Origin: Atopobacter sp. AH10
Lineage (GTDB): Bacteria; Bacillota; Bacilli; Lactobacillales; Aerococcaceae
Direction of reading: 5' to 3'
DNA: 64,000 nt
Assembly (NCBI RefSeq): GCF_003664595.1
Contig: NZ_QXPZ01000021.1
Location: 1-64,000 of the forward strand
In this document: in pieces, positions 3,649 through 15,952 of the stretch
Numbering within the stretch: the stretch's first letter is position 1
Layout of the letters: each line of letters opens with the position of its first letter
Program-made: the position numbers and the translations under genes
Notes under the pieces: generated by a model
The model's database searches: none
What the model was told of the DNA's origin: nothing
What the model saw: the letters and a program-made list of their open reading frames with translations, nothing else

Positions 3649-3957
3649 AATGTGTAGGGAATACTTGGGAGACATTTTGTTTTTGAGAGGAAATTTAAAG
3701 GGGCTAGTAAAAGTTTAGGGGAGGCTATAGCATGTAGGGTTTGGGTATAACCTTGATGACTTTTCACATGATCAAGGGTAAATTTGTTCGGAAAAACAAA
3801 ATAAAGCGTATGTTAAGTTTTTTGTGTAGGCAAAAAAATAGTAAAACACGAACATTTAAAGAAAAATAAATAAAATAATTCGTTAGAGTACTTTACATTG
3901 TGCAAAAGTACTATATAATAAGACTATCAACTAAGCAAAGCACATGAGGAGGACCAC
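3649..3957 (+). promoter_or_regulatory. purC upstream region with promoter and PurBox-like sites
   Basis: TTTACA (3892-3897) and TATAAT (3914-3919) with a 16-base spacer form the promoter. Two imperfect PurBox-like sequences lie upstream: TTTTCCGAACAAA on the minus strand (about 3783-3795) and AAACACGAACATT (about 3843-3855), against the lactic acid bacterial consensus AWWWCCGAACWWT. PurR control is inferred; the second site matches poorly. Confidence 0.5.
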
Positions 3958-4638
3958 ATGGAAAAGATTTACACTGGAAAAACCAAAGACGTTTATGAAA
4001 TCGACGACAAGTCCGTTTTGCTCCACTTCAAGGACGATGTGACAGGTAAGGATGGAGTTTTCGATCCTGGTGAAAATCAAGTCGGCTTGCAAATTGAAGG
4101 TGCTGGTCACTCTGCTGTTGCAATGACCAAATTCTTCTATGAAAAACTAAACGATTTAGGCCTATTTACTCACTTTATTTCTGCTGACTTGGATAAAAAT
4201 GAAGCAGTTGTCCGTAAGGCTAAAGTATTCGGTAAGGGTGTAGAAGTCATCGTTCGCTATCGAGCAGTGGGGTCATTCTTACGCCGTTATGGTGCCTATA
4301 TCGAAGAAGCTGCTGAATTGCCAAGTTTCGTTGAAGTGACTTTGAAAGATGACAAACGCAACGATCCACCAATTTCTGCGGATGCTTTAGAGATTTTATC
4401 GATTATGGATAAGAATCAATACAAAGAATTAGAAGACCTTGCTCGTAAGATTGGGGAAGTCGTCAAAGCTGAATTAGCTAAAAAAGACTTGGAATTATAT
4501 GACATCAAATTCGAATTTGGAGAAATTGATGGGAAAGTGGCTTTGATTGATGAAATTTCTGACGGTAACATGCGTGCCTACCATAAGGGTGAATATATCC
4601 AACCACTCGATTTAGAAAAGCGTTTGTTAGGGGAATAA
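3958..4638 (+). CDS. purC: phosphoribosylaminoimidazole-succinocarboxamide synthase (SAICAR synthetase)
   Basis: A 226-residue cytosolic enzyme that joins CAIR and aspartate with ATP in purine synthesis. It shows the N-terminal ATP motif (YTGKTKDVYEIDD), the VIVRYRAVGSFLRRYG segment, and the C-terminal signature ALIDEISDGNMR. The length is typical of the short bacterial form. The ATG has GAGGAGG 6 bases upstream. It is alone here, without the rest of the pur operon, and is followed by its own terminator. Confidence 0.95.
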   Translation: MEKIYTGKTKDVYEIDDKSVLLHFKDDVTGKDGVFDPGENQVGLQIEGAGHSAVAMTKFFYEKLNDLGLFTHFISADLDKNEAVVRKAKVFGKGVEVIVRYRAVGSFLRRYGAYIEEAAELPSFVEVTLKDDKRNDPPISADALEILSIMDKNQYKELEDLARKIGEVVKAELAKKDLELYDIKFEFGEIDGKVALIDEISDGNMRAYHKGEYIQPLDLEKRLLGE

Positions 4639-4663
4639 TAGATAACTTTTGAATGATGCTATC

Positions 4664-4716
4664 GGCTAAGTAGCTAGGGACAGTTTGAAGCCTGTCGCTA
4701 GTCACTTAGCCTTTTT
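4664..4716 (+). terminator. purC terminator
   Basis: A long stem (GGCTAAGT..CTAG.GACAG pairing with CTGTC..CTAG..ACTTAGCC) followed by TTTTT. Confidence 0.9.
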
Positions 4717-4753
4717 CCTTTGTTAACGTTTAAGAAGAGGATCGGACTAAAGG

Positions 4754-4790: not shown

Positions 4791-4968
4791 AGAGGGTATT
4801 TAAAGGGTAAGGTAAGGGCGCTGTTTAAGGAACTTAAAATAGCCTAATGTAGTGTTCAAATGTTCTATAGCTGGACTGGAATTTTACTAAAGGAGTGTAG
4901 TGTCAAATAAATTGTGTAAACTGTCTTGTAAGACTGTAGATATAGTGTGGGAAGTCTTTTTTAATAGA

Positions 4969-6324
4969 CTAAGCTATTTTGGCGCCTTCTTTGCTTCTTG
5001 CAGCGAGAGCTTTTAGAGAAGATAATCGACGTTTTAAAAGGAAAGACGAGCATACTAGGGTGATAGCCTCGGAAATGGCGAGAGAGAACCAGATAGCGCC
5101 AGCTCCCAAAAGACGTGGGGCTAGTGTTAAAACAGCACAAATGACCACATAACCTCGGAGGAGGGAAATAATTAATTCAAAGTCAGGGCGATGAACAGCC
5201 GTCAGATACCCCCCTATGCCAATGTTGAATCCAAGAAGGAGAAAGGCGAGGCTAAATTCACGAATAGCTTTGACTGTAAATTGAACGAAAGTAGGATCAG
5301 CTTGACTCAAGAAAACAGCGATGATTTGTCGAGGAAAAATCTGGATTAAAGCCACTAGAACGATGGAAGAAATGGCAATGGTTAGGAAAATCATTCTACG
5401 GAGTTTTTTCATCGTAAAGTAAGCCTCTGCCCCAAAAGAGTAAGAGATTAAAGGTTGTCCACTTTGGAGGATAGCGATCATAGTGTTGGTGATGAGGGTC
5501 ATCAGGTAGACAATAACAGAGAAACTAGCGATTTTTTCTGTCCCATAATAAGTAAGAATGGAGTGGTTGAATAAGAGAATAGTAAAACCTGAAGCCAGTT
5601 CTGTTAAGGCAGAAGGAATACCGAAGCGTACGATGCGGATAAAATCGGTGAAGTGAAAGCGAAATGGAGTGAAGGATAAATTGGAGCGTTTGGATAGAAA
5701 GTGAAGGCAATAACCTAGACTGGGCACTAATTGAGCCAAGCCTGTTGCGACTGCAGCACCATACACTCCCAAATGAAAGATATAGATAAAGATGTAATCT
5801 AAGGCGATATTGGTTAAGGCAGATAGACTTGTTAAGAAAATAGCTAACTTAGGATGGCCATCCGCTTTGATAAATATTTCAAAGACATAGGTTAAAGCAA
5901 AGAAAGGGCTAAAGAGAATAATGACGTGAAGATAGTCGTGTGCCAAAGAGCGAATACTTTCTTTAGCGCCTAAAATAGATAAGATCAAGTCGATGTGATA
6001 GAAAGAAAAAGCCGCTATAAGGAAAGACAGGCCGGCAGATATGGCGATGCCTAAACTGAAAAATTTATTCGCCTTTTCTAGATGTTTTTGCCCTAGCTGG
6101 TAGGTGATCATATTCGAGGTGCCGATGGAAATTAACATTGCTAGAGCAAACATGACCGTTGTGAAAGGTAAAGAAACATTCACGGCAGATAGTGCAGTTG
6201 CCCCAACACCTTGTCCGACGAAGATCCCGTCTACCATCGTGTAACTGGAAAAAAGAATCATAGAACCTAGAGTGGGTAATAAAAATCTCAAGTAGGTTCG
6301 ATAGATATTGCCACTAATTAACAT
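4969..6324 (-). CDS. MATE family multidrug efflux pump
   Basis: A 451-residue protein with about 12 membrane segments in two similar halves, as in MATE transporters that export cationic drugs using Na+ or H+. The N-terminal TMVDGIFVGQGVGATALSAVN stretch and the internal IPSALTELASG region of the second half are typical. The start at ATG 6324 is chosen because GAGGAGG lies 5 bases before it; an in-frame ATG 18 bases further up would place the ribosome site inside the gene. It is divergent from a BmrR-like regulator with the MerR operator at 6361 in between, which indicates drug-induced expression. The substrate is unknown. Confidence 0.92.
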   Translation of the reverse strand: MLISGNIYRTYLRFLLPTLGSMILFSSYTMVDGIFVGQGVGATALSAVNVSLPFTTVMFALAMLISIGTSNMITYQLGQKHLEKANKFFSLGIAISAGLSFLIAAFSFYHIDLILSILGAKESIRSLAHDYLHVIILFSPFFALTYVFEIFIKADGHPKLAIFLTSLSALTNIALDYIFIYIFHLGVYGAAVATGLAQLVPSLGYCLHFLSKRSNLSFTPFRFHFTDFIRIVRFGIPSALTELASGFTILLFNHSILTYYGTEKIASFSVIVYLMTLITNTMIAILQSGQPLISYSFGAEAYFTMKKLRRMIFLTIAISSIVLVALIQIFPRQIIAVFLSQADPTFVQFTVKAIREFSLAFLLLGFNIGIGGYLTAVHRPDFELIISLLRGYVVICAVLTLAPRLLGAGAIWFSLAISEAITLVCSSFLLKRRLSSLKALAARSKEGAKIA

Positions 6325-8218: not shown

Positions 8219-8423
8219 GTGTGGAAGAAGTTGATAAGGCTAGTCTTTTGCAGAAACTCGTGTGAAACAAGTTGACAAGACTAGTCTTTTACAGAAATTC
8301 GAGTGAAACAAGTTGATGAAACTGGTCTTTTACAGAAATTCGAGTGAAACAAGTTGATAAGACTAGCCTGTGATAGAAATTAGTGTGAAGCAATTGAGCA
8401 GACTTGTCTTGTATAGTTTCGCT
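8219..8423. repeat. 41-bp tandem array, five copies
   Basis: Units start at 8219, 8260, 8301, 8342 and 8383, an exact 41-base period, with the shared core GTGAAACAAGTTGATAAGAC and CAGAAATTCG. Units 3 and 4 are nearly identical and the outer ones have diverged. A weak sixth copy may occupy 8178-8218. It fills the spacer before the proline iminopeptidase gene and has no open frame. Confidence 0.92.
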
Positions 8424-8473: not shown

Positions 8474-9361
8474 ATGGAAAGAGAAGTAGAAGAAGCTTAT
8501 ATGCCATTTGGAACAGCCAAGACCTACTATCGTATCGTTCATCCAAATGGGAAGAAGGATCCGCTTATTTTCCTTCATGGAGGGCCGGGATCTACCCATA
8601 ATTATTTTGAGAGTTTTGATGAACTGGCAGAAATAGTAGACAGACCTTTCGTTATGTATGATCAGATTGGTTGTGGCTTATCCGATTATTCTGGAGGACC
8701 GGAACTCTTTAATGCGGAAACGTGGATGAATGAATTAGCTGCCTTAAGGGAGTATTTACATTTGGACAACTGCCATTTATTTGGTCAATCTTGGGGTGGT
8801 ATGTTAGAAATCGCCTATATGATTGAACGGAAGCCTAAAGGGGTGAAGTCAGTTATTTTGTCTTCAACTTTACCAGCTGCACATCTGTGGAAAGAGGAGC
8901 AATTCCGTCGCATCTCTTACTTGAATGAGGAAGATAGAGAAGCTTTTTATCGAGCGGAAAAGACAGGGGACTTTCAAGATCCAGCTTATTTAGAGGCTTT
9001 AGATCGTTTTATGGAAAAGTATTGTGCGTCTGCTCCTAAAAAGGACGATCCAGAGTATATGAGAAGAAAGAAAATAGGTGGGCGTCAAGCTTATGTAGTG
9101 GCTTGGGGAGAAAATGAATGCATGCCAACAGGAACCTTGGCCGGCTTTGATTATACAGAGCGATTAAATGAAATATCTGTGCCGACTTTAATCACTAGTG
9201 GGCAGATGGATCTTTGCTCACCTTTCATTGCGAAAACTATGTTGGATCGTTTGCCAAATGCTCAGTGGGAATTATTCCAATATTCACGCCATATGCCATA
9301 CATAGATGAGAAAGAAAAATATCATGACATATTGTTGAAGTGGTTGGCTCAGTTCGATTAG
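8474..9361 (+). CDS. pip: proline iminopeptidase
   Basis: A 295-residue alpha/beta hydrolase that removes N-terminal proline from peptides in the cytosol, part of peptide use in lactic acid bacteria. It has the oxyanion motif HGGPG (35-39), nucleophile GQSWGG with Ser106, an Asp in SGQMDLC and the catalytic His in SRHMPY. The length fits the short PepI type. The start ATG has AGGGAGGAAG upstream. It forms its own unit between two repeat-filled spacers. Confidence 0.92.
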   Translation: MEREVEEAYMPFGTAKTYYRIVHPNGKKDPLIFLHGGPGSTHNYFESFDELAEIVDRPFVMYDQIGCGLSDYSGGPELFNAETWMNELAALREYLHLDNCHLFGQSWGGMLEIAYMIERKPKGVKSVILSSTLPAAHLWKEEQFRRISYLNEEDREAFYRAEKTGDFQDPAYLEALDRFMEKYCASAPKKDDPEYMRRKKIGGRQAYVVAWGENECMPTGTLAGFDYTERLNEISVPTLITSGQMDLCSPFIAKTMLDRLPNAQWELFQYSRHMPYIDEKEKYHDILLKWLAQFD

Positions 9362-9397: not shown

Positions 9398-9508
9398 GGC
9401 GTATTAGGGAAAAAATAGCTGATTCACCAAAATAAGAGGTAAAAATAGCTGATTCAGCAAACAACAGGTAAAAAAATAGCTGATTCACCAAAATAAGAGG
9501 AATACGCC
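9398..9508. repeat. 30-bp tandem array framed by an inverted pair
   Basis: Three units of AAAATAGCTGATTCACCAAA type begin near 9411, 9441 and 9472 (period 30-31). They are bracketed by GGCGTATT (9398-9405) and its inverted complement AATACGCC (9501-9508), so the array could form the loop of a stem. Confidence 0.8.
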
Positions 9509-9993: not shown

Positions 9994-10680
9994 GTGGGGA
10001 GAAGATTGTTGAAACAAAGGGAAGTAGAGGCTTTGGTTCGAGCTATGATGAAGCTGTATCCGGCTAGTCGGTCGGAGTTGATGTTTTCGAACCGTTTTGA
10101 GCTCGTCTGCGCAGTAGCCCTAAGTGCTCAGACAACAGATAAGGCTGTCAATTTAGTCACACCTGCTTTATTTTCAGCATACCCAACTCCAGAAGCTATG
10201 AAAGATGCCCCTTTAGAGCATTTGGAAGAACTTTTGAGCACTATTGGACTTTATCGAAATAAGGCCAAACACCTCAAAAAAATGGCACAACAGTTGGTGG
10301 ATGATTTTAATGGACAAGTTCCCGGCAGTCGGGAAGATTTAGTGACTTTGGCTGGCGTGGGAAGAAAGACAGCTAATGTGGTCTTATCTAATGGATTTGG
10401 GGTACCAGCTTTTGCGGTAGATACGCATATTGAACGAGTCTCTAAACGGATGAAATTTGTTCCAGCTTCTAGTACAGTACGACAAGTGGAAGATCGAATG
10501 ACACGTCTTTTACCAGAAGACTTGTGGACAGATGCCCACCATTCTATCTTGCTATTCGGACGATATCAATGTACAGCTAGAAATCATGATCACAAGGCAT
10601 GCTTAAAGCGTTTAGCAGAAGTCTTAAAAGAAAACCCAGATGCAAGTGAAGCAATAGATTATTTAGGGTCGATAGAATAG
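9994..10680 (+). CDS. nth: endonuclease III with degenerate Fe-S ligand set
   Basis: A 228-residue HhH-GPD DNA glycosylase/AP lyase that removes oxidised pyrimidines. The helix-hairpin-helix LAGVGRKTANVVL carries catalytic Lys125 and VDTHI carries Asp143, 18 residues later as in E. coli Nth (K120/D138). The C-terminal [4Fe-4S] motif Cys-X6-Cys-X2-Cys-X5-Cys is broken: Cys193 and Cys203 remain, but the second ligand is His200 and the fourth is Glu209. Catalysis should persist while the cluster is probably lost. The start is GTG with AGGAGG 7 bases upstream. Confidence 0.93.
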   Translation: MGRRLLKQREVEALVRAMMKLYPASRSELMFSNRFELVCAVALSAQTTDKAVNLVTPALFSAYPTPEAMKDAPLEHLEELLSTIGLYRNKAKHLKKMAQQLVDDFNGQVPGSREDLVTLAGVGRKTANVVLSNGFGVPAFAVDTHIERVSKRMKFVPASSTVRQVEDRMTRLLPEDLWTDAHHSILLFGRYQCTARNHDHKACLKRLAEVLKENPDASEAIDYLGSIE

Positions 10681-10717
10681 AAGAAAGGGTAGGGAACTAA
10701 TCTTTCTTAAATGAGCA

Positions 10718-10763
10718 AAGCACATCATCGCTACTATTTTAGTAGGATAGATGTGCTTTTTTT
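10718..10763 (+). terminator. terminator after nth
   Basis: The stem AAGCACAT / ATGTGCTT with further pairing inside, followed by seven T. Confidence 0.85.
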
Positions 10764-10951
10764 GTTGATTTTTAGCCTGAATTCCCGGAACAAGGTGTTT
10801 CAAGGCATAACGATTAGAATATGTTTTTGAGGGATGAGGAAGTTGCATATATTTTAATCACTAGCATATAGTGGGAATTTACACCGTTAGATGGATCTGA
10901 CAGGAGCTATGTAGGGAAGATCCGAGAGTAAATAAATTTTATGATACATTC
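10764..10951. other. spacer
   Basis: No gene, hairpin or repeat was seen here beyond the promoter at its right end. Confidence 0.4.
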
Positions 10952-10981
10952 TTGACTGTATTGAAAACCACATGCTATAAT
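10952..10981 (+). promoter_or_regulatory. promoter of the peptide/ABC operon
   Basis: TTGACT (10952-10957) and TATAAT (10976-10981) with an 18-base spacer, about 70 bases before the 18-codon gene. Confidence 0.7.
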
Positions 10982-11051
10982 AAATGACAAAATTTATTCT
11001 TTTAAGAATATTTATATAAGTTTTAAATTTGTAGAAAAGAGGAGACTGAAG

Positions 11052-11108
11052 ATGAAAAAATCAGTTAAAAATATAGGAAAGCAGCTGTGGCAGCCTGGTA
11101 AAGAATAA
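11052..11108 (+). CDS. 18-residue cationic peptide, first gene of ABC operon
   Basis: The complete product is MKKSVKNIGKQLWQPGKE: five Lys, one Glu, one Trp, no Cys, no leader and no double-Gly site. The ATG has AGAGGAG 7 bases upstream, as good as any site in the window, and the stop TAA overlaps the next gene's ribosome site (TAAGGAG), so translation is probably coupled. It could be a leaderless secreted peptide (bacteriocin, toxin or signal) handled by the following ABC genes. A regulatory leader peptide is the other option. I know no family for it. Confidence 0.65.
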   Translation: MKKSVKNIGKQLWQPGKE

Positions 11109-11118
11109 GGAGAAAAAC

Positions 11119-12258
11119 ATGAGATGGCGGGATTGTTTAGCTATTAGGATGGCGTCTTCGTCCAGAAAAATGGCAGGAAGTCCATTTTTATTAACAATAT
11201 ATACTTTATTAGCATCCTGTATTTTTTCTTTTTTTTCTATAGTTGTACAATTCAGTAATTATACATTTACTTTATTGATCAATTCGCTAGTGTTATATCT
11301 CATTGTTTTATATAATCAACCGTTCATCACAAGAGAATTTAATAACACTCGCTTTTTAACGTATTGTACAAATCCGTTTGTACGATTAAGATTACTTTTT
11401 GTTCTTGTCGCTGACAATAATCCGATTGCCTACTTGTTGCCAGTGTATTTATTGATCAATAGTTTGTTTAATTTTTTTGATCCATATAAAATTTTCTTAC
11501 TCATGTATTCACTGAGTATCATATGTCATTGCTTGATTGTACAACAAATTGTCCGTGAAAGGCAAAGAATTGCTTGCTTATTAGCGTTAAGCTGTATACT
11601 CATTATAAGCTTTTATGAAATTAAAATAGTTCCACTATTGTTTTTGTTGAATCTTGGCCTACTATATTTTGTGTTGATGAAGTATGTTCAGTTGCCTATA
11701 ACAATAGATAGGCAACTGAATAATAAAATAGTCCATTCTAGTAGCTCTTACAGTGGAATTTTTTTTATTTATAAAGTGGTAGCGAAGCAAATATATAGGG
11801 GTAGCTATAAAATTGTTTTCTTTATTGTACTGAGTTTTCTTTTGGGAGTGCTAGTTAGTAGATTTCTTGCTAATGATTTTACAAGCATTTTTTTATATAA
11901 TGCTATGTTAGAATTCGAATTGCAAATGGATGAAAAATATAAATATCTTTATAAGTTCCTTCCAAAGTTTTATTTTTTAAATAATGGGCAGCTCAGTTTT
12001 TTTGAACGCTACATCTTATCGTATAACTTTATTTCTGCTGTAAAAATTGCTCTGTGCATGATTGCTTTCGGTCTAGGGACGAATGTTAGTGTGTATAAAT
12101 TGCTTATCTATGTAGCCTTGTTAGGACTACTGAGCATTACTTACTTTAAAATGGAAGAAAAAATGTATAGCAAAAAGAAGAAAATAAACAACTTAATCGT
12201 TCAATATAGTGTCTTTACATTGCTATCTAGTACGCTTCTATTGATTAACCTTTTATAA
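11119..12258 (+). CDS. polytopic membrane protein, putative ABC permease
   Basis: A 379-residue protein with about 9-10 hydrophobic segments, a basic N-terminus (MRWRDCLAIRMASSSRKM) and Lys-rich ends of loops. A central cytoplasmic part (about 185-235) and an extracellular-type loop (about 265-315, LEFELQMDEKYKYLYKFLPKF) interrupt the membrane spans. It resembles the variable permeases of peptide export or bacteriocin immunity ABC systems in length and layout, but I recognise no named family. Base composition is clearly more AT-rich than in the flanking genes. The start overlaps the ribosome site placed in the stop of the 18-codon gene. Confidence 0.8.
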   Translation: MRWRDCLAIRMASSSRKMAGSPFLLTIYTLLASCIFSFFSIVVQFSNYTFTLLINSLVLYLIVLYNQPFITREFNNTRFLTYCTNPFVRLRLLFVLVADNNPIAYLLPVYLLINSLFNFFDPYKIFLLMYSLSIICHCLIVQQIVRERQRIACLLALSCILIISFYEIKIVPLLFLLNLGLLYFVLMKYVQLPITIDRQLNNKIVHSSSSYSGIFFIYKVVAKQIYRGSYKIVFFIVLSFLLGVLVSRFLANDFTSIFLYNAMLEFELQMDEKYKYLYKFLPKFYFLNNGQLSFFERYILSYNFISAVKIALCMIAFGLGTNVSVYKLLIYVALLGLLSITYFKMEEKMYSKKKKINNLIVQYSVFTLLSSTLLLINLL

Positions 12259-12273
12259 AGGAGATTTTCTGCC

Positions 12274-12378
12274 ATGAAAATTTCGATTAGAAAATATGGC
12301 TTATGGTTAATGGTATGGACTCTCCTTTTAGTTTGTTACTTGTTATTTCTGCGGTTATTGAAGGTGGTATATAAATGA
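12274..12378 (+). CDS. 34-residue single-span membrane peptide
   Basis: A short gene with AAAGGAG upstream whose TGA overlaps the ATG of the ABC ATPase (ATGA). The product has a basic N-terminus (MKISIRKYG), one hydrophobic span (about residues 9-29, LWLMVWTLLLVCYLLFL) and a basic tail (RLLKVVYK). It could be a small subunit of the transporter, an immunity peptide or a membrane-active peptide. Its position and coupling argue that it is real. Confidence 0.65.
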   Translation: MKISIRKYGLWLMVWTLLLVCYLLFLRLLKVVYK

Positions 12379-12977
12379 ATTTGATTCAAGTGTCTAATTT
12401 CTATCAAGATATTAGTGACCAATTTGCTCTTAATTGTAAACACCTTAAAATTGAACCAGCAGTCTATCAATTTAAAGGAGAAAATGGTTCAGGCAAGAGT
12501 ATTTTTTTAAAATACTTGGCTAAGTTAATTCCTGAAAAACACTCAATGATTCAAAATAATTGTCAAAGGATCTTATATTTAACCAATGAAGAAATAGCAT
12601 TACCTAACTTAACGGTCAGAGAAAATCTTCAATTAAATCATTTTATTTTTAAAATAAGAGAGGAAATACGTACAGATTTAATTCCAGAAGAGCATCTATC
12701 CTTATTATGTAAAAATGCCTCATTGGGAACTAGGCAGAAAATAGGCCTTAGTTTGGCTTTGGTTGAAAATTTCTGGGATTTGATCGTCTTGGATGAAGCG
12801 TTTTCCAATCTAGATTCAGATGCTTTAGAAACATTTTTGTTAGCTATTGAGAAACGGGGCCATGAAGGGACAATTGTTTTATTTGTGGAACATCAAATCA
12901 ATTTTTCTAGTTATAGTTTCTTTAAAGGCTTAAAAGTCATTCGAATGATGCAGGGGGAAATTGATGAAGAAATGTAA
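12375..12977 (+). CDS. short ABC transporter ATPase
   Basis: A 200-residue nucleotide-binding protein with Walker A GENGSGKS (36-43), a degenerate signature SLGTRQKIGLSLAL, Walker B DLIVLDEAF and an H-loop His in FVEHQ. The SLGTRQ signature and short length are typical of ATPases of bacteriocin export and immunity systems. It should energise the membrane proteins on either side. It overlaps both its neighbours, which indicates one translationally coupled unit. Confidence 0.92.
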   Translation: MNLIQVSNFYQDISDQFALNCKHLKIEPAVYQFKGENGSGKSIFLKYLAKLIPEKHSMIQNNCQRILYLTNEEIALPNLTVRENLQLNHFIFKIREEIRTDLIPEEHLSLLCKNASLGTRQKIGLSLALVENFWDLIVLDEAFSNLDSDALETFLLAIEKRGHEGTIVLFVEHQINFSSYSFFKGLKVIRMMQGEIDEEM

Positions 12978-13452
12978 ATTAATTTATCTGGTATTTGCTA
13001 GTTACCTCACTAGTTTTTTGCTGTTAGTTTTTGAATATATTAACTCTCATACAACTTTAAAACTTCAACTCAATTTTGTTCAGAAAGAATTAGGAATTTC
13101 ATCCACTAAACTCTCCCTGTTAGTTTTTCTTATTGCTACTATATATTCAATTATTGCTTTGTTGTTGTACTATAAAGTAGGTGAATTTTTTGCTCTTAAA
13201 TGCGATAATATAAAAAACTATAATAGCGAGCAACTTATCGTTTCTATAATGATTAGTGAAACTGTATGTTACGTTACTAGTTTATTTCTTATTCGACACA
13301 TTGATATAAATAGCATACGATTAATTATTCCGACATTGGGGCTAATCATCTTAGCTACCTTATTGAATAAAAAATATTCTTTTAAGTTTGTCCTAACAGT
13401 TCTATTGGTTCGTTTTTTATTTTATCTAAGTAATCTACTTGTTGTGGTCTAA
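12964..13452 (+). CDS. small membrane protein of the ABC operon
   Basis: A 162-residue protein with four or five predicted membrane spans (about 5-25, 48-70, 85-105, 115-133, 138-160) and no recognisable motif. The ATG lies inside the end of the ATPase gene with GGGGGA about 5 bases upstream. It is probably the second membrane half or an accessory subunit of the transporter. Confidence 0.75.
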   Translation: MKKCKLIYLVFASYLTSFLLLVFEYINSHTTLKLQLNFVQKELGISSTKLSLLVFLIATIYSIIALLLYYKVGEFFALKCDNIKNYNSEQLIVSIMISETVCYVTSLFLIRHIDINSIRLIIPTLGLIILATLLNKKYSFKFVLTVLLVRFLFYLSNLLVVV

Positions 13453-13476
13453 GCTACTAATATAGAGGGAGATAAA

Positions 13477-13980
13477 ATGAAAAAGACTAAAATACTTATA
13501 GGTATGATGATATTATCATGGATAGTCTTAAGCTATCGTTTTTATGAAGCTTTTTTAAAAAAAGTAAAGTTAATGGATATACCGTCTACAGGGGATCATT
13601 TAATCGATTCAATGCTCAATGAAAGTAATCATTTTTCCTATCAACAAGCTTTATTTCAGCAAAATTCGAGCAATAAATTACTATTGATATTTCTGTTCCT
13701 TCTACTAGCAGTAAGCTTCTTTTCCTATATAAAAAATAAATTTGTGTTTGCTCACATATTTTATATCGGGTATATCGTGTTGAATTTCATTAAAGAGATT
13801 TATAAACTCTATCATACTGATCGGCTGATTGTAGATTTAAGTTTATCTGATGCGAAGGATTTTGCGAGTATAAGTCTAAATTTCAGCCTCCACTTCACTT
13901 TTTTTATAGGGATTGTTTATTTAGGGATGACTTTTTATAGTTTATATAAAACACATACATATTCTCTTTGTGGCAGTTAA
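13477..13980 (+). CDS. membrane protein of the ABC operon
   Basis: A 167-residue protein with an N-terminal span (6-24), an exposed polar stretch (33-64, MDIPSTGDHLIDSMLNESNHF) and three further spans (68-86, 88-110, 133-158). It is not recognised. RBS GAGGGAG precedes the ATG. As the last gene of the operon it could be an accessory or immunity protein. The operon terminator lies at 14231. Confidence 0.72.
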   Translation: MKKTKILIGMMILSWIVLSYRFYEAFLKKVKLMDIPSTGDHLIDSMLNESNHFSYQQALFQQNSSNKLLLIFLFLLLAVSFFSYIKNKFVFAHIFYIGYIVLNFIKEIYKLYHTDRLIVDLSLSDAKDFASISLNFSLHFTFFIGIVYLGMTFYSLYKTHTYSLCGS

Positions 13981-14230
13981 AATCACATGGGCATACGTCT
14001 TAAAAATGTCATCTTGCTAAGAACGAATGGCTTTAGCTAAAGTGCCTTAGGAGAATTATAGCCTATGTCCTAAAATTCTTTACGAGTCGCTAAAGATAAT
14101 TGGATAAACTAAAAAGCCTAAGAAGACTCTTAGCCAACGCCATTTAAGGCAAGTGGCACTTCTTATGAGCAGGGCTTATTTTCTAAATCATTTGTACAGT
14201 TCATCAAGAAATAAAATAGTTCTATAAAAA
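13981..14230. other. spacer after the ABC operon
   Basis: No open frame with a ribosome site is visible. The composition returns to that of the rest of the window. Confidence 0.35.
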
Positions 14231-14277
14231 GACCTAGAATTTGGTAAGCATAACTTGCCAGATCCTGGGTCTTTTTT
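14231..14277 (+). terminator. terminator of the peptide/ABC operon
   Basis: An 18-base arm GACCTAGAATTTGGTAAG pairs with CTTGCCAGATCCTGGGTC using a few wobble positions and is followed by six T. Confidence 0.85.
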
Positions 14278-14323
14278 GTTATAGCTAAGAGATAGCTATT
14301 GGTGAGAAAAGTAAAAGAGGCGA

Positions 14324-14339
14324 ATGCTAACGTTTGCAT
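14324..14339 (-). promoter_or_regulatory. cre site (CcpA)
   Basis: On the minus strand ATGCAAACGTTAGCAT matches the catabolite-response consensus WTGNAANCGNWNNCAW at every defined base. It lies about 130 bases before the PTS regulator gene, so glucose repression of the PTS locus is expected. Confidence 0.8.
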
Positions 14340-14388
14340 TAAAGGGGGCTTACAGTAAAATAGAGGGCAAAGAAATAGTATGAAGAAC

Positions 14389-14412
14389 TAATGGCCATTG
14401 CAATGGCCATTA
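14389..14412. promoter_or_regulatory. 24-bp perfect palindrome, possible operator
   Basis: The half-site TAATGGCCATTG is followed directly by its exact inverse. With no loop it is better read as a protein binding site than as an RNA hairpin. It sits 59 bases before the regulator start. Confidence 0.6.
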
Positions 14413-14470
14413 ATTAGTGAAAACCTTATCATTTTTTAAGTTAGAATATGATTAATAGGAGGAGAGGAAA

Positions 14471-15952
14471 TTGGATCATCAAGATAAACGACTCCATAAG
14501 CTCTTATTCATTTTAGCCGAACAGAGAGATTACATGACAGCTGACGATTTAAGTCATCTGATGAATGTCTCGAAGAAAAGCATTTATAGGGCGATTAAAA
14601 CCATTAATGAAACGAGTGTTGATCGGCCTCTGATTGTTTCTGAAAGGGGCAAGGGCTATAAGTTAGATTACGATGTTTATATGACCCAAGAAGGGGTGGA
14701 TCAGCAAGATATGATGGATCCACAAACTCGTCAAACTCGAGTGATGGAAACCTTATTATTGTGTTCCCCTCAAGCTGTGAAAGTCTCTGATCTTTACTCT
14801 ACTTTTTATGTTAGTGATTCAACCATTAATTTGGACGAAAAAATGATTTCTGAAAACTTAAGATCCTTTGATTTGAAACTTTTGAGGCAGAACAAACGTT
14901 TAGCCATTATTGGCAAGGAAATGAATGTTAGAAGAGCCCTATTAGAGATGATTCAACCCTTAGAGGTTATGGATATGGAAGAATTTTCTTTATCAAATCA
15001 TTTTAACAAGTATGATGCTTTATTCGTTTCGGATAGACTTCGTGAAATTGAGCGCTATATGGGGTCGCTTATTCCCTATCCTTATAACATCAACATATTT
15101 TCTCACTTATATATTTTGATTGCCAGAAGTAGAAGAGGGCAGACGGAAGATGACGATCAAGAATTAGATCAGATGGTGGAAGAGGCAAACTTTTCGAATG
15201 AGAGATATCTGCATATTGCAGAATCCATTATTCAAACTACCGAAAATTATCTCCATAGAAGTTTAAGTAAACGTGAAGTTCTCTATCTGTATCAATACTT
15301 GATTTCATCTCGCTTGTCAAAGGATCCTGATCCTACAATAGTTTATTCTGAAGAATTGCGGGAAATGACCAATGATTTAATTAAACGAATGGGCGAAAAA
15401 TTGCATCGCCATTTCAATGATACTAAGTTAGTAGTGGATTTGATCCAACATATGAAACCCTTGAGGAATCGTTTAGTAAATGGGATACGGATTCACAATC
15501 CTTTATTAGGGCAGATTCAAGTGGCCTATCCAGATATTTTTAAATGCCTACAGGAAGTTATAGAAGAAATAAGGATGATATACCATCTGCCAGAAATTAC
15601 AGCAGATGAAATTGGCTTTTTGACGGTTTATTTTGCGAGGGCAGTTGAAACAAGTGTTCAAGCTATTCGAACGATTGTGATGTGTACAACAGGGCTAGGG
15701 ACATCAGAATTGATTCGGGTGAAAGTTAAAAAGAAATTTCCTGAATTAGAAGTTATAAGGGTAGTTTCTCGCTATGAAATAGACCAAATTTTAGAAGAAA
15801 TGTCCGATATTGAATTGGTCTTAACCACGATTGCTTATTCTCCTAAAATTGCCATACCGACATTACTTATATCAGCCATGTTAACAACGAAAGATTGTAT
15901 GAGGATTCAAGAGATGATAGATGCTTTAACGAAAGAAGGACGTAGGGAGTGA
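14471..15952 (+). CDS. PRD-domain PTS regulator (BglG/MtlR type)
   Basis: A 493-residue activator or antiterminator-like protein: N-terminal winged HTH (about 8-60, DLSHLMNVSKKSIYRAI), a second HTH region (about 88-140), two PTS regulation domains (about 180-290 and 300-400, with the phosphorylatable His in ERYLHIAES and HRHFNDTK contexts) and a C-terminal EIIB-like domain beginning at VMCTTGLGTSE (Cys about 404). The EIIA function is on the separate next gene. It should control the Gat-type PTS genes downstream in response to PTS phosphorylation. The start is TTG after AGGAGGAGAGG. Confidence 0.9.
   Translation: MDHQDKRLHKLLFILAEQRDYMTADDLSHLMNVSKKSIYRAIKTINETSVDRPLIVSERGKGYKLDYDVYMTQEGVDQQDMMDPQTRQTRVMETLLLCSPQAVKVSDLYSTFYVSDSTINLDEKMISENLRSFDLKLLRQNKRLAIIGKEMNVRRALLEMIQPLEVMDMEEFSLSNHFNKYDALFVSDRLREIERYMGSLIPYPYNINIFSHLYILIARSRRGQTEDDDQELDQMVEEANFSNERYLHIAESIIQTTENYLHRSLSKREVLYLYQYLISSRLSKDPDPTIVYSEELREMTNDLIKRMGEKLHRHFNDTKLVVDLIQHMKPLRNRLVNGIRIHNPLLGQIQVAYPDIFKCLQEVIEEIRMIYHLPEITADEIGFLTVYFARAVETSVQAIRTIVMCTTGLGTSELIRVKVKKKFPELEVIRVVSRYEIDQILEEMSDIELVLTTIAYSPKIAIPTLLISAMLTTKDCMRIQEMIDALTKEGRRE

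What the first reader, a model, noticed from the sequence alone, without database searches (positions are those of the whole stretch)
11052..13980. Operon of an 18-residue cationic peptide, a 34-residue membrane peptide and an unusual ABC system
Seen: six closely spaced or overlapping genes with strong ribosome sites, their own promoter and terminator, and a base composition more AT-rich than the flanks. The first gene gives MKKSVKNIGKQLWQPGKE and overlaps the next gene's ribosome site; the third gives a one-span peptide overlapping the ATPase start (ATGA). Known: SLGTRQ-type short ATPases and variable permeases are common in bacteriocin export and immunity. Inference: the 18-mer is a leaderless antimicrobial or signal peptide and the membrane genes export it or protect against it. 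No modification enzyme, leader or double-Gly site exists, so known classes do not fit.
Basis: partly seen in the sequence, partly recalled or inferred. Interest (0 to 1): 0.78.

Follow-up and report, generated by a model that had tools for sequence, protein, structure and literature searches.

The report
Disarmed circular-bacteriocin operon
This operon looks like a gene cluster for a ring-shaped antibacterial peptide that has lost the peptide gene and one helper gene but kept other transport and protection genes; the two tiny "peptide genes" appear to be leftovers of the lost ones.

Summary
The six reading frames exist as described, but the 18-mer and 34-mer are very probably not peptide genes of their own. 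The 379-residue protein, the ATPase and the 162-residue protein match the B, D and E genes of circular-bacteriocin operons (order A precursor, B, C SpoIIM/DUF95, D ATPase, E): profile E-values 2e-21, 1e-44 and 3e-11. In most homologous loci the 18-mer's slot holds the precursor and the 34-mer's slot SpoIIM (10 of 12 each). In another frame the DNA of the 18-mer ends in KYRKAAVAAW-stop, a circular-bacteriocin precursor C-terminus: 0 of 97,269 unrelated stop codons and 0 of 20,000 shuffles score as high. The DNA of the 34-mer, in another frame, ends in PFSLLLVISAVIEGGI-stop, resembling the SpoIIM C-terminus (4 of 37,977; 8 of 20,000; weaker). No PF09221 or PF01944 gene was found in the genome. 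Best reading: a disarmed circular-bacteriocin operon, A and C reduced to out-of-frame scars, with B, D, E and a 167-residue gene intact, probably as immunity. Immunity is untested, and in AS-48 the SpoIIM-type protein itself is needed for full immunity. Bacteriocin-less "cheater" clusters are known for other bacteriocins.

The parts
10952..10981 (+). sigma-70-like promoter, TTGACT-18-TATAAT with TG
   Evidence: 11 of 12 consensus positions; function not tested
11052..11108 (+). 18-codon frame MKKSVKNIGKQLWQPGKE in the slot of the precursor gene A; read here as a deletion scar that may still lead ribosomes to gene B
11069..11101 (+). scar of gene A: KYRKAAVAAW-stop, C-terminus of a circular-bacteriocin precursor, in another frame than the 18-mer
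   Evidence: 0 of 97,269 unrelated stops and 0 of 20,000 shuffles score as high
11119..12258 (+). gene B, 379 aa multi-span membrane protein of circular-bacteriocin operons
   Evidence: profile of 10 homologues E 2.1e-21, best unrelated decoy 0.82
12274..12378 (+). 34-codon frame in the slot of gene C (SpoIIM/DUF95); its stop overlaps the start of D; read here as a deletion scar
   Evidence: no similarity to SpoIIM in its own frame
12324..12374 (+). probable scar of gene C: PFSLLLVISAVIEGGI-stop, SpoIIM-like C-terminus with the IEG motif, in another frame, its TAA directly before the ATG of D
   Evidence: 4 of 37,977 unrelated frame ends and 8 of 20,000 shuffles score as high
12375..12977 (+). 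gene D, ABC ATPase of the circular-bacteriocin type (GENGSGKS, SLGTRQ, LIVLDE and H-loop histidine kept)
   Evidence: profile of 10 homologues E 1.2e-44; groups with 11 of them at 100/99 against 3 other ABC ATPases
12964..13452 (+). gene E, 162 aa membrane protein, in the place of pneumocyclicin pcyE
   Evidence: profile of 12 homologues E 3.4e-11, best unrelated decoy 0.63
13477..13980 (+). 167 aa membrane protein, distant relative of NF049893 (spr0155_permease); not noticed in the listings of the other circular operons
   Evidence: 57.5 bits, under the 120-bit cut-off
14226..14278 (+). terminator hairpin with T run
   Evidence: z -6.13

Best explanation
The operon descends from a circular-bacteriocin operon of the order A (precursor), B (membrane protein), C (SpoIIM/DUF95), D (ATPase), E (membrane protein). 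The bodies of A and C are gone. What remains of each is, at the 3' end, the last 10 (A) or about 16 (C) codons with the stop, in another frame than the 18- and 34-codon frames that now stand there; the start region and ribosome site in front are presumably the old ones. B, D, E and a 167-residue gene are intact behind a promoter-like site. The operon cannot make the bacteriocin. It most likely works as a self-protection ABC system: B and D, with E, keep a circular bacteriocin out of the membrane or remove it, so that the cell tolerates producers without paying for production. The scars may serve only to carry ribosomes to B and D by translational coupling. Shown by sequence: the homology, the missing genes, the scar of A; less firmly the scar of C. 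Inferred: immunity, expression, coupling.
For: B, D and E match homologues from circular-bacteriocin loci (each profile also holds G118, which has no precursor). Precursors in the relatives: PF09221 over its cut-off for 4 of 4 scanned and in 5 genomes, RefSeq annotation in 2 plasmids; L069, L072 and L172 were recognised by reading and alignment only. Precursor in 10 of 12 homologous loci, SpoIIM in 10 of 12. Scar of A: 0 of 97,269 and 0 of 20,000. Scar of C: 4 of 37,977 and 8 of 20,000. No PF09221 match better than E 0.51 and no PF01944 match in the genome. [quoted passage not shown] A review says the membrane protein and ATPase EnkB1 and EnkB3 can confer partial immunity (passages of PMC6131525).
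Against: No expression or immunity data. In AS-48 the gene required for full immunity is as-48C, whose protein is of the SpoIIM/DUF95 family, just the one missing here (passages of PMC4517551). The scar of C scores below all 10 true members in leave-one-out (5.7 against 11.0-23.9), and an unanchored scan of 10600-14500 finds a higher chance score across the stop of E. B is only 13-25% identical to single homologues. The intact genes may simply not have decayed yet; no close relative was found to measure selection. PF01944 is weak on this branch (it sees G075's gene only at E 0.03).
Confidence: 0.68

Rival explanations
1. A dead relic: the whole operon lost its use when A and C were lost, and B, D, E are intact only because too little time has passed.
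For: No close homologues to show selection; the scar of A is still readable, so the loss may be recent; in AS-48 the SpoIIM-type protein, missing here, is needed for full immunity.
Against: The losses hit A and C and spare B, D, E, the 167-aa gene, the promoter-like site and the ribosome sites; if two deletions fell at random over about 1162 codons, one in A and one in C has a chance near 0.02 (arithmetic, lengths of A and C taken from relatives; rough and post hoc). G118 also keeps B-D-E without A and C.
Confidence: 0.23
2. One reading: the 18-mer is a leaderless antimicrobial or signal peptide, exported or resisted by the membrane genes.
For: Good ribosome site, cationic, first in the operon.
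Against: Its DNA ends, in another frame, in a precursor C-terminus; homologous loci have no such frame in that place; B-D-E are circular-bacteriocin genes.
Confidence: 0.04
3. The 34-mer is a dedicated immunity peptide, small, cationic and one-span, and not a scar.
For: A review describes dedicated immunity proteins as small, cationic and hydrophobic and gives the carnocyclin order cclBITCDA; that its I is the immunity gene, directly behind B, is recalled.
Against: Its slot is that of SpoIIM in 10 of 12 homologous loci; a SpoIIM-like C-terminus in another frame lies directly before D; no NCBIfam match at E 1.
Confidence: 0.12

Closest known systems
Pneumocyclicin / uberolysin / circularin A cassettes (A-B-C-D-E)
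   Same: Order and sizes of B, D and E as printed for pneumocyclicin; protein families as in the homologous loci compared here
   Different: Precursor A and SpoIIM gene C are reduced to out-of-frame scars; an extra 167-residue gene follows E. The pneumocyclicin, uberolysin and circularin proteins themselves were not compared
Plasmid-borne uberolysin/carnocyclin-family operons (L173 Priestia flexa, L174 Staphylococcus aureus pWH39)
   Same: B-D-E homologues in the same order
   Different: They have precursor and SpoIIM genes; L174 also has HlyD and ABC accessory genes
Partial, bacteriocin-less clusters ('cheater' type) of streptococcins in pneumococci
   Same: Bacteriocin gene lost, immunity and/or transporter genes kept (passages of PMC6120550)
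   Different: Those are lactococcin-972-like, not circular; here a second gene, SpoIIM, is lost as well
G118 locus (L064)
   Same: B-D-E without precursor and without SpoIIM
   Different: No scar found; a 55-residue frame lies upstream; not shown to be a sister of the window operon

Membership tests
Circular (head-to-tail) bacteriocin gene cluster | precursor peptide gene of the PF09221/TIGR03651 type | tested here: not met
   none among 293 six-frame pieces of 10600-14500 (best E 4.5) or in the genome (best E 0.51); only the last 10 codons and the stop remain
Circular (head-to-tail) bacteriocin gene cluster | SpoIIM/DUF95 membrane protein gene | tested here: not met
   no PF01944 match in the genome (the model is weak on this branch: it finds the gene of G075 only at E 0.03); probable scar at 12324-12374
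Circular (head-to-tail) bacteriocin gene cluster | ABC ATPase D of the cluster's own kind | tested here: met
   E 1.2e-44 with a profile that leaves the window out. With the eight-row profile 7 of 395 genomes score 172 bits or more and the next 107, but 6 of the 7 are themselves in that profile
Circular (head-to-tail) bacteriocin gene cluster | large membrane protein B next to the precursor slot | tested here: met
   E 2.1e-21
Circular (head-to-tail) bacteriocin gene cluster | membrane protein E behind D (pneumocyclicin type) | tested here: met
   E 3.4e-11
Orphan bacteriocin immunity operon | confers protection against the bacteriocin | not testable with these tools
   needs an expression and sensitivity assay
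Orphan bacteriocin immunity operon | transport/immunity-type genes without the bacteriocin gene | tested here: met
Leaderless bacteriocin operon | short peptide gene conserved in homologous operons | tested here: not met

The most novel reading that the evidence does not exclude
The scars have been put to new use: frame-shifted remnants of a bacteriocin precursor and of SpoIIM now encode an 18- and a 34-residue peptide born by overprinting, for instance as obligatory coupling peptides or as a one-span subunit of a B-D-E immunity transporter.
Probability: 0.07. Interest if true: 0.6.

Novelty: new variant of a known kind. Interest (0 to 1): 0.36.

Why it matters
It turns an apparent new peptide system into a readable case of a bacteriocin cluster that has lost its weapon. 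B, D and E are spared and A and C are lost; print assigns full immunity to cirBD in one system but to the SpoIIM-type as-48C in another, so this locus is a natural test of which genes suffice for protection against circular bacteriocins. It also warns that short frames in bacteriocin operons can be deletion scars, which reading the other frames reveals. Published mining that demands a precursor, a DUF95 gene and an ATPase gene (PMC8534725, passages) would pass over such operons.

Tried and rejected
Single-sequence searches with the 379-residue protein found no relative, nor did the ATPase in viral contigs or the 162- and 167-residue proteins in plasmids. Streptococcus-like loci with the 167-residue relative were read first and proved a false lead: in the loci listed the gene stands beside other genes, not this ABC system.

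What was looked at and what was not: of 9 genomes found with the ATPase neighbourhoods were fetched (G378 was not); of the 80 loci, 12 were listed and only L072 proved a circular operon; of 16 plasmid records, 4 were opened; G169 was listed and is not of this kind, and G338 was fetched but not listed.

The 18-mer was first taken as an in-frame remnant of the precursor. In its own frame the similarity is weak: 1.3-1.7% of shuffles as good, 0.7% of 1603 short frames and 2.3% of the 354 with like charge; the other-frame reading explains it better. A motif count (5 of 11,688 short frames: 3 real precursor ends, one chance match, the 18-mer) was post hoc and is not relied on. The 34-mer in its own frame is not similar to SpoIIM (68% of shuffles as good). 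The hmmsearch runs on pools of short peptides gave no result of their own (a stale table was printed); those lines were ignored.

A scar of A upstream of B in G118 (...LFIAAW-stop) was considered and rejected (score -7.0; best stop-anchored score there -1.0). The trees did not join window and G118 firmly. The AlphaFold model of B was useless (mean pLDDT 38.4), so no fold search was made. PADLOC gave only partial ATPase matches. Behind the HhH-GPD gene (nth by my naming) 3 of 4 relatives have another gene pair in convergent orientation (recU/pbp-like by size and order, my naming), so no clean empty site was shown.
Full report
OBSERVATION. A good promoter-like site precedes them, and hairpins with T runs close the gene upstream and this operon downstream.

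WHAT THE LARGE GENES ARE. Family models recognise only the ATPase (Pfam ABC_tran) and, weakly, the last gene (NF049893, under its cut-off). Searches of 395 genomes of the order and 398 of the class with the ATPase gave 9 genomes besides the window's own at E 1e-13, with 53-94 bits. Of the 8 neighbourhoods fetched, 5 carry circular-bacteriocin precursors close by (L066-L070), one is cut by a contig end (L065), one has B-D-E without precursor (L064, genome G118) and one is unrelated (L071). PF09221 passes its cut-off for the 4 precursors scanned, and the protein before the ATPase in L067 is a SpoIIM relative at 25.0 bits, just under the 26.9 cut-off. TIGR03651 passes for one of 2 precursors. A Ruminococcus MAG (L072) shows the full order precursor, B, SpoIIM, ATPase, E. 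RefSeq names the precursor and SpoIIM in Priestia flexa and the precursor in Staphylococcus aureus pWH39. Among 12 loci compared, a precursor is seen in 10 (L066, L067, L068, L069, L070, L072, L172, L173, L174, L176) and SpoIIM in 10 (the same without L069, plus a fragment in L065); most of the SpoIIM proteins were recognised by reading and alignment. L069 has another gene order and L070 a B gene that seems broken. A Staphylococcus xylosus record (L175) that begins shortly before the ATPase was not counted.

STRENGTH OF THE HOMOLOGY. Profiles built without the window (B from 10, D from 10, E from 12 sequences, G118 among them; L065 B, L070 B, L066 D and L069 D not used) were run against the window protein plus 1403 other frames, in which the window's own copies also occur. 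B: E 2.1e-21, best unrelated 0.82. E: 3.4e-11, best unrelated 0.63. D: 1.2e-44, best generic ABC protein 6.2e-29. With an eight-row D profile that includes the window, 7 of 395 genomes of the order score 172 bits or more and the next 107; 6 of these 7 are in the profile, so only G273 is an independent find, and it proved a full circular operon. A phylum sample of 329 held no other at E 1e-33, with 9 candidates scored per genome. In the tree the 12 D proteins stand apart from 3 other ABC ATPases (100/99), but their inner order is open and the window's branch is long.

WHAT THE SHORT FRAMES ARE. In these operons the gene before B is the precursor and the gene before D is SpoIIM; in the window these places hold the 18-mer and the 34-mer. 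A precursor profile finds nothing among 293 six-frame pieces of 10600-14500 (best E 4.5); the SpoIIM profile's best piece is the frame just before D (E 0.11). That frame ends PFSLLLVISAVIEGGI and stops directly before the ATG of D, where the SpoIIM proteins end with a similar stretch, IEG in most, plus 2-7 residues. Anchored to the stop, 4 of 37,977 frame ends from unrelated loci and 0 of 2360 others in the window reach its score, though all 10 true members score higher. The same check on the 18-mer gives KYRKAAVAAW-stop at 11069-11101, against KYGKKYAAMW, RYGKAYAAAW and SYGKKYAAAW in relatives. 0 of 97,269 stops from unrelated loci reach its score, with either of two backgrounds; it is the best of 7911 in the window, and it lies within the leave-one-out range of the 11 true precursors (5.1-20.7). 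In dinucleotide shuffles of the two short regions the figures are 0 of 20,000 and 8 of 20,000. The other-frame readings were found after looking at the region, so the first figure, which survives such a choice, carries the case; the second is supporting. In an unanchored scan a chance place scores above the SpoIIM scar (8.9 against 5.7).

THE REST OF THE GENOME. No PF09221 match better than E 0.51 in the window's genome or 2.99 in G118, and no PF01944 match in either. The PF01944 model is weak for this branch: it sees G075's gene only at 0.03 and G247's at 5e-5. The 379-residue protein has no homologue in 75 other genomes of the family, so the operon is probably acquired; its low G+C agrees.

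HOW IT WORKS. Published work, as reported in papers read in part here: cirBCD serve maturation and secretion, cirE immunity (passages of PMC10028692). cirBCD are essential for production; cirBD and, in AS-48, as-48C are required for full immunity, and as-48D1 and cirE are small immunity peptides not sufficient alone (passages of PMC4517551). EnkB1 and EnkB3 can confer partial immunity, and a knock-out of the DUF95 gene of leucocyclicin Q left mature circular peptide inside the cells (passages of PMC6131525). The window keeps B, D and E and lacks A and C. Hence the proposal of a protection-only operon; the circularin and enterocin results fit it, the AS-48 result, where the SpoIIM-type protein counts for immunity, does not. 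Two random large deletions would land one in A and one in C with a chance of about 0.02, a rough, post hoc figure. 91.6% of circular clusters are reported to show translational coupling (passages of PMC7132975), and the short frames end on the ribosome site of B and on the start of D, so they may persist as couplers (inference).

KNOWN OR NEW. Incomplete, probably vestigial circular clusters are mentioned in print (passages of PMC7132975), and clusters that lose the bacteriocin gene but keep immunity and/or transport genes are described for streptococcins as a possible cheater type (passages of PMC6120550). Four searches of the library listed no paper that by title or the start of its abstract describes a circular cluster reduced to B-D-E with scars; the listings were capped (20 of 181, 12 of 12, 15 of 5143, 15 of 35), so this is a weak statement. 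Circular and leaderless enterocins sharing an immunity transporter are known (PMC10598978, outline and abstract only). The finding is a new variant of a known kind.

HOST. That the order is Lactobacillales is my inference from the Streptococcus-like group that carries spr0155 relatives.

Noticed in passing
window 8221-8410 and 9406-9500: Two tandem arrays, 41-bp unit x 4.7 and 31-bp unit x 3.1, on either side of the frame at 8474-9361 (alpha/beta-hydrolase by my reading).
   Followed up: no
L064 (G118), reverse complement 4891-5058: A 55-residue hydrophobic peptide frame before a B-D-E set that also lacks precursor and SpoIIM; possibly a second disarmed or altered circular operon.
   Followed up: partly
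L070 (G702), reverse complement 3748-4580: Two nearly identical circular-bacteriocin precursor genes in tandem, followed by a B gene that appears broken.
   Followed up: no
L068 (G228) 4195-4724: Two different circular-bacteriocin precursors in tandem before one B-C-D-E set.
   Followed up: no
L172, Enterococcus faecalis plasmid record LR962590.1, 2904-6069 of the locus: A complete circular-bacteriocin operon (by reading and alignment) in a record whose gene table holds one feature.
   Followed up: no
window 13477-13980: Distant relative of the streptococcal spr0155 'permease' family, which in the loci listed stands beside unrelated genes; its role in this operon is unexplained.
   Followed up: partly
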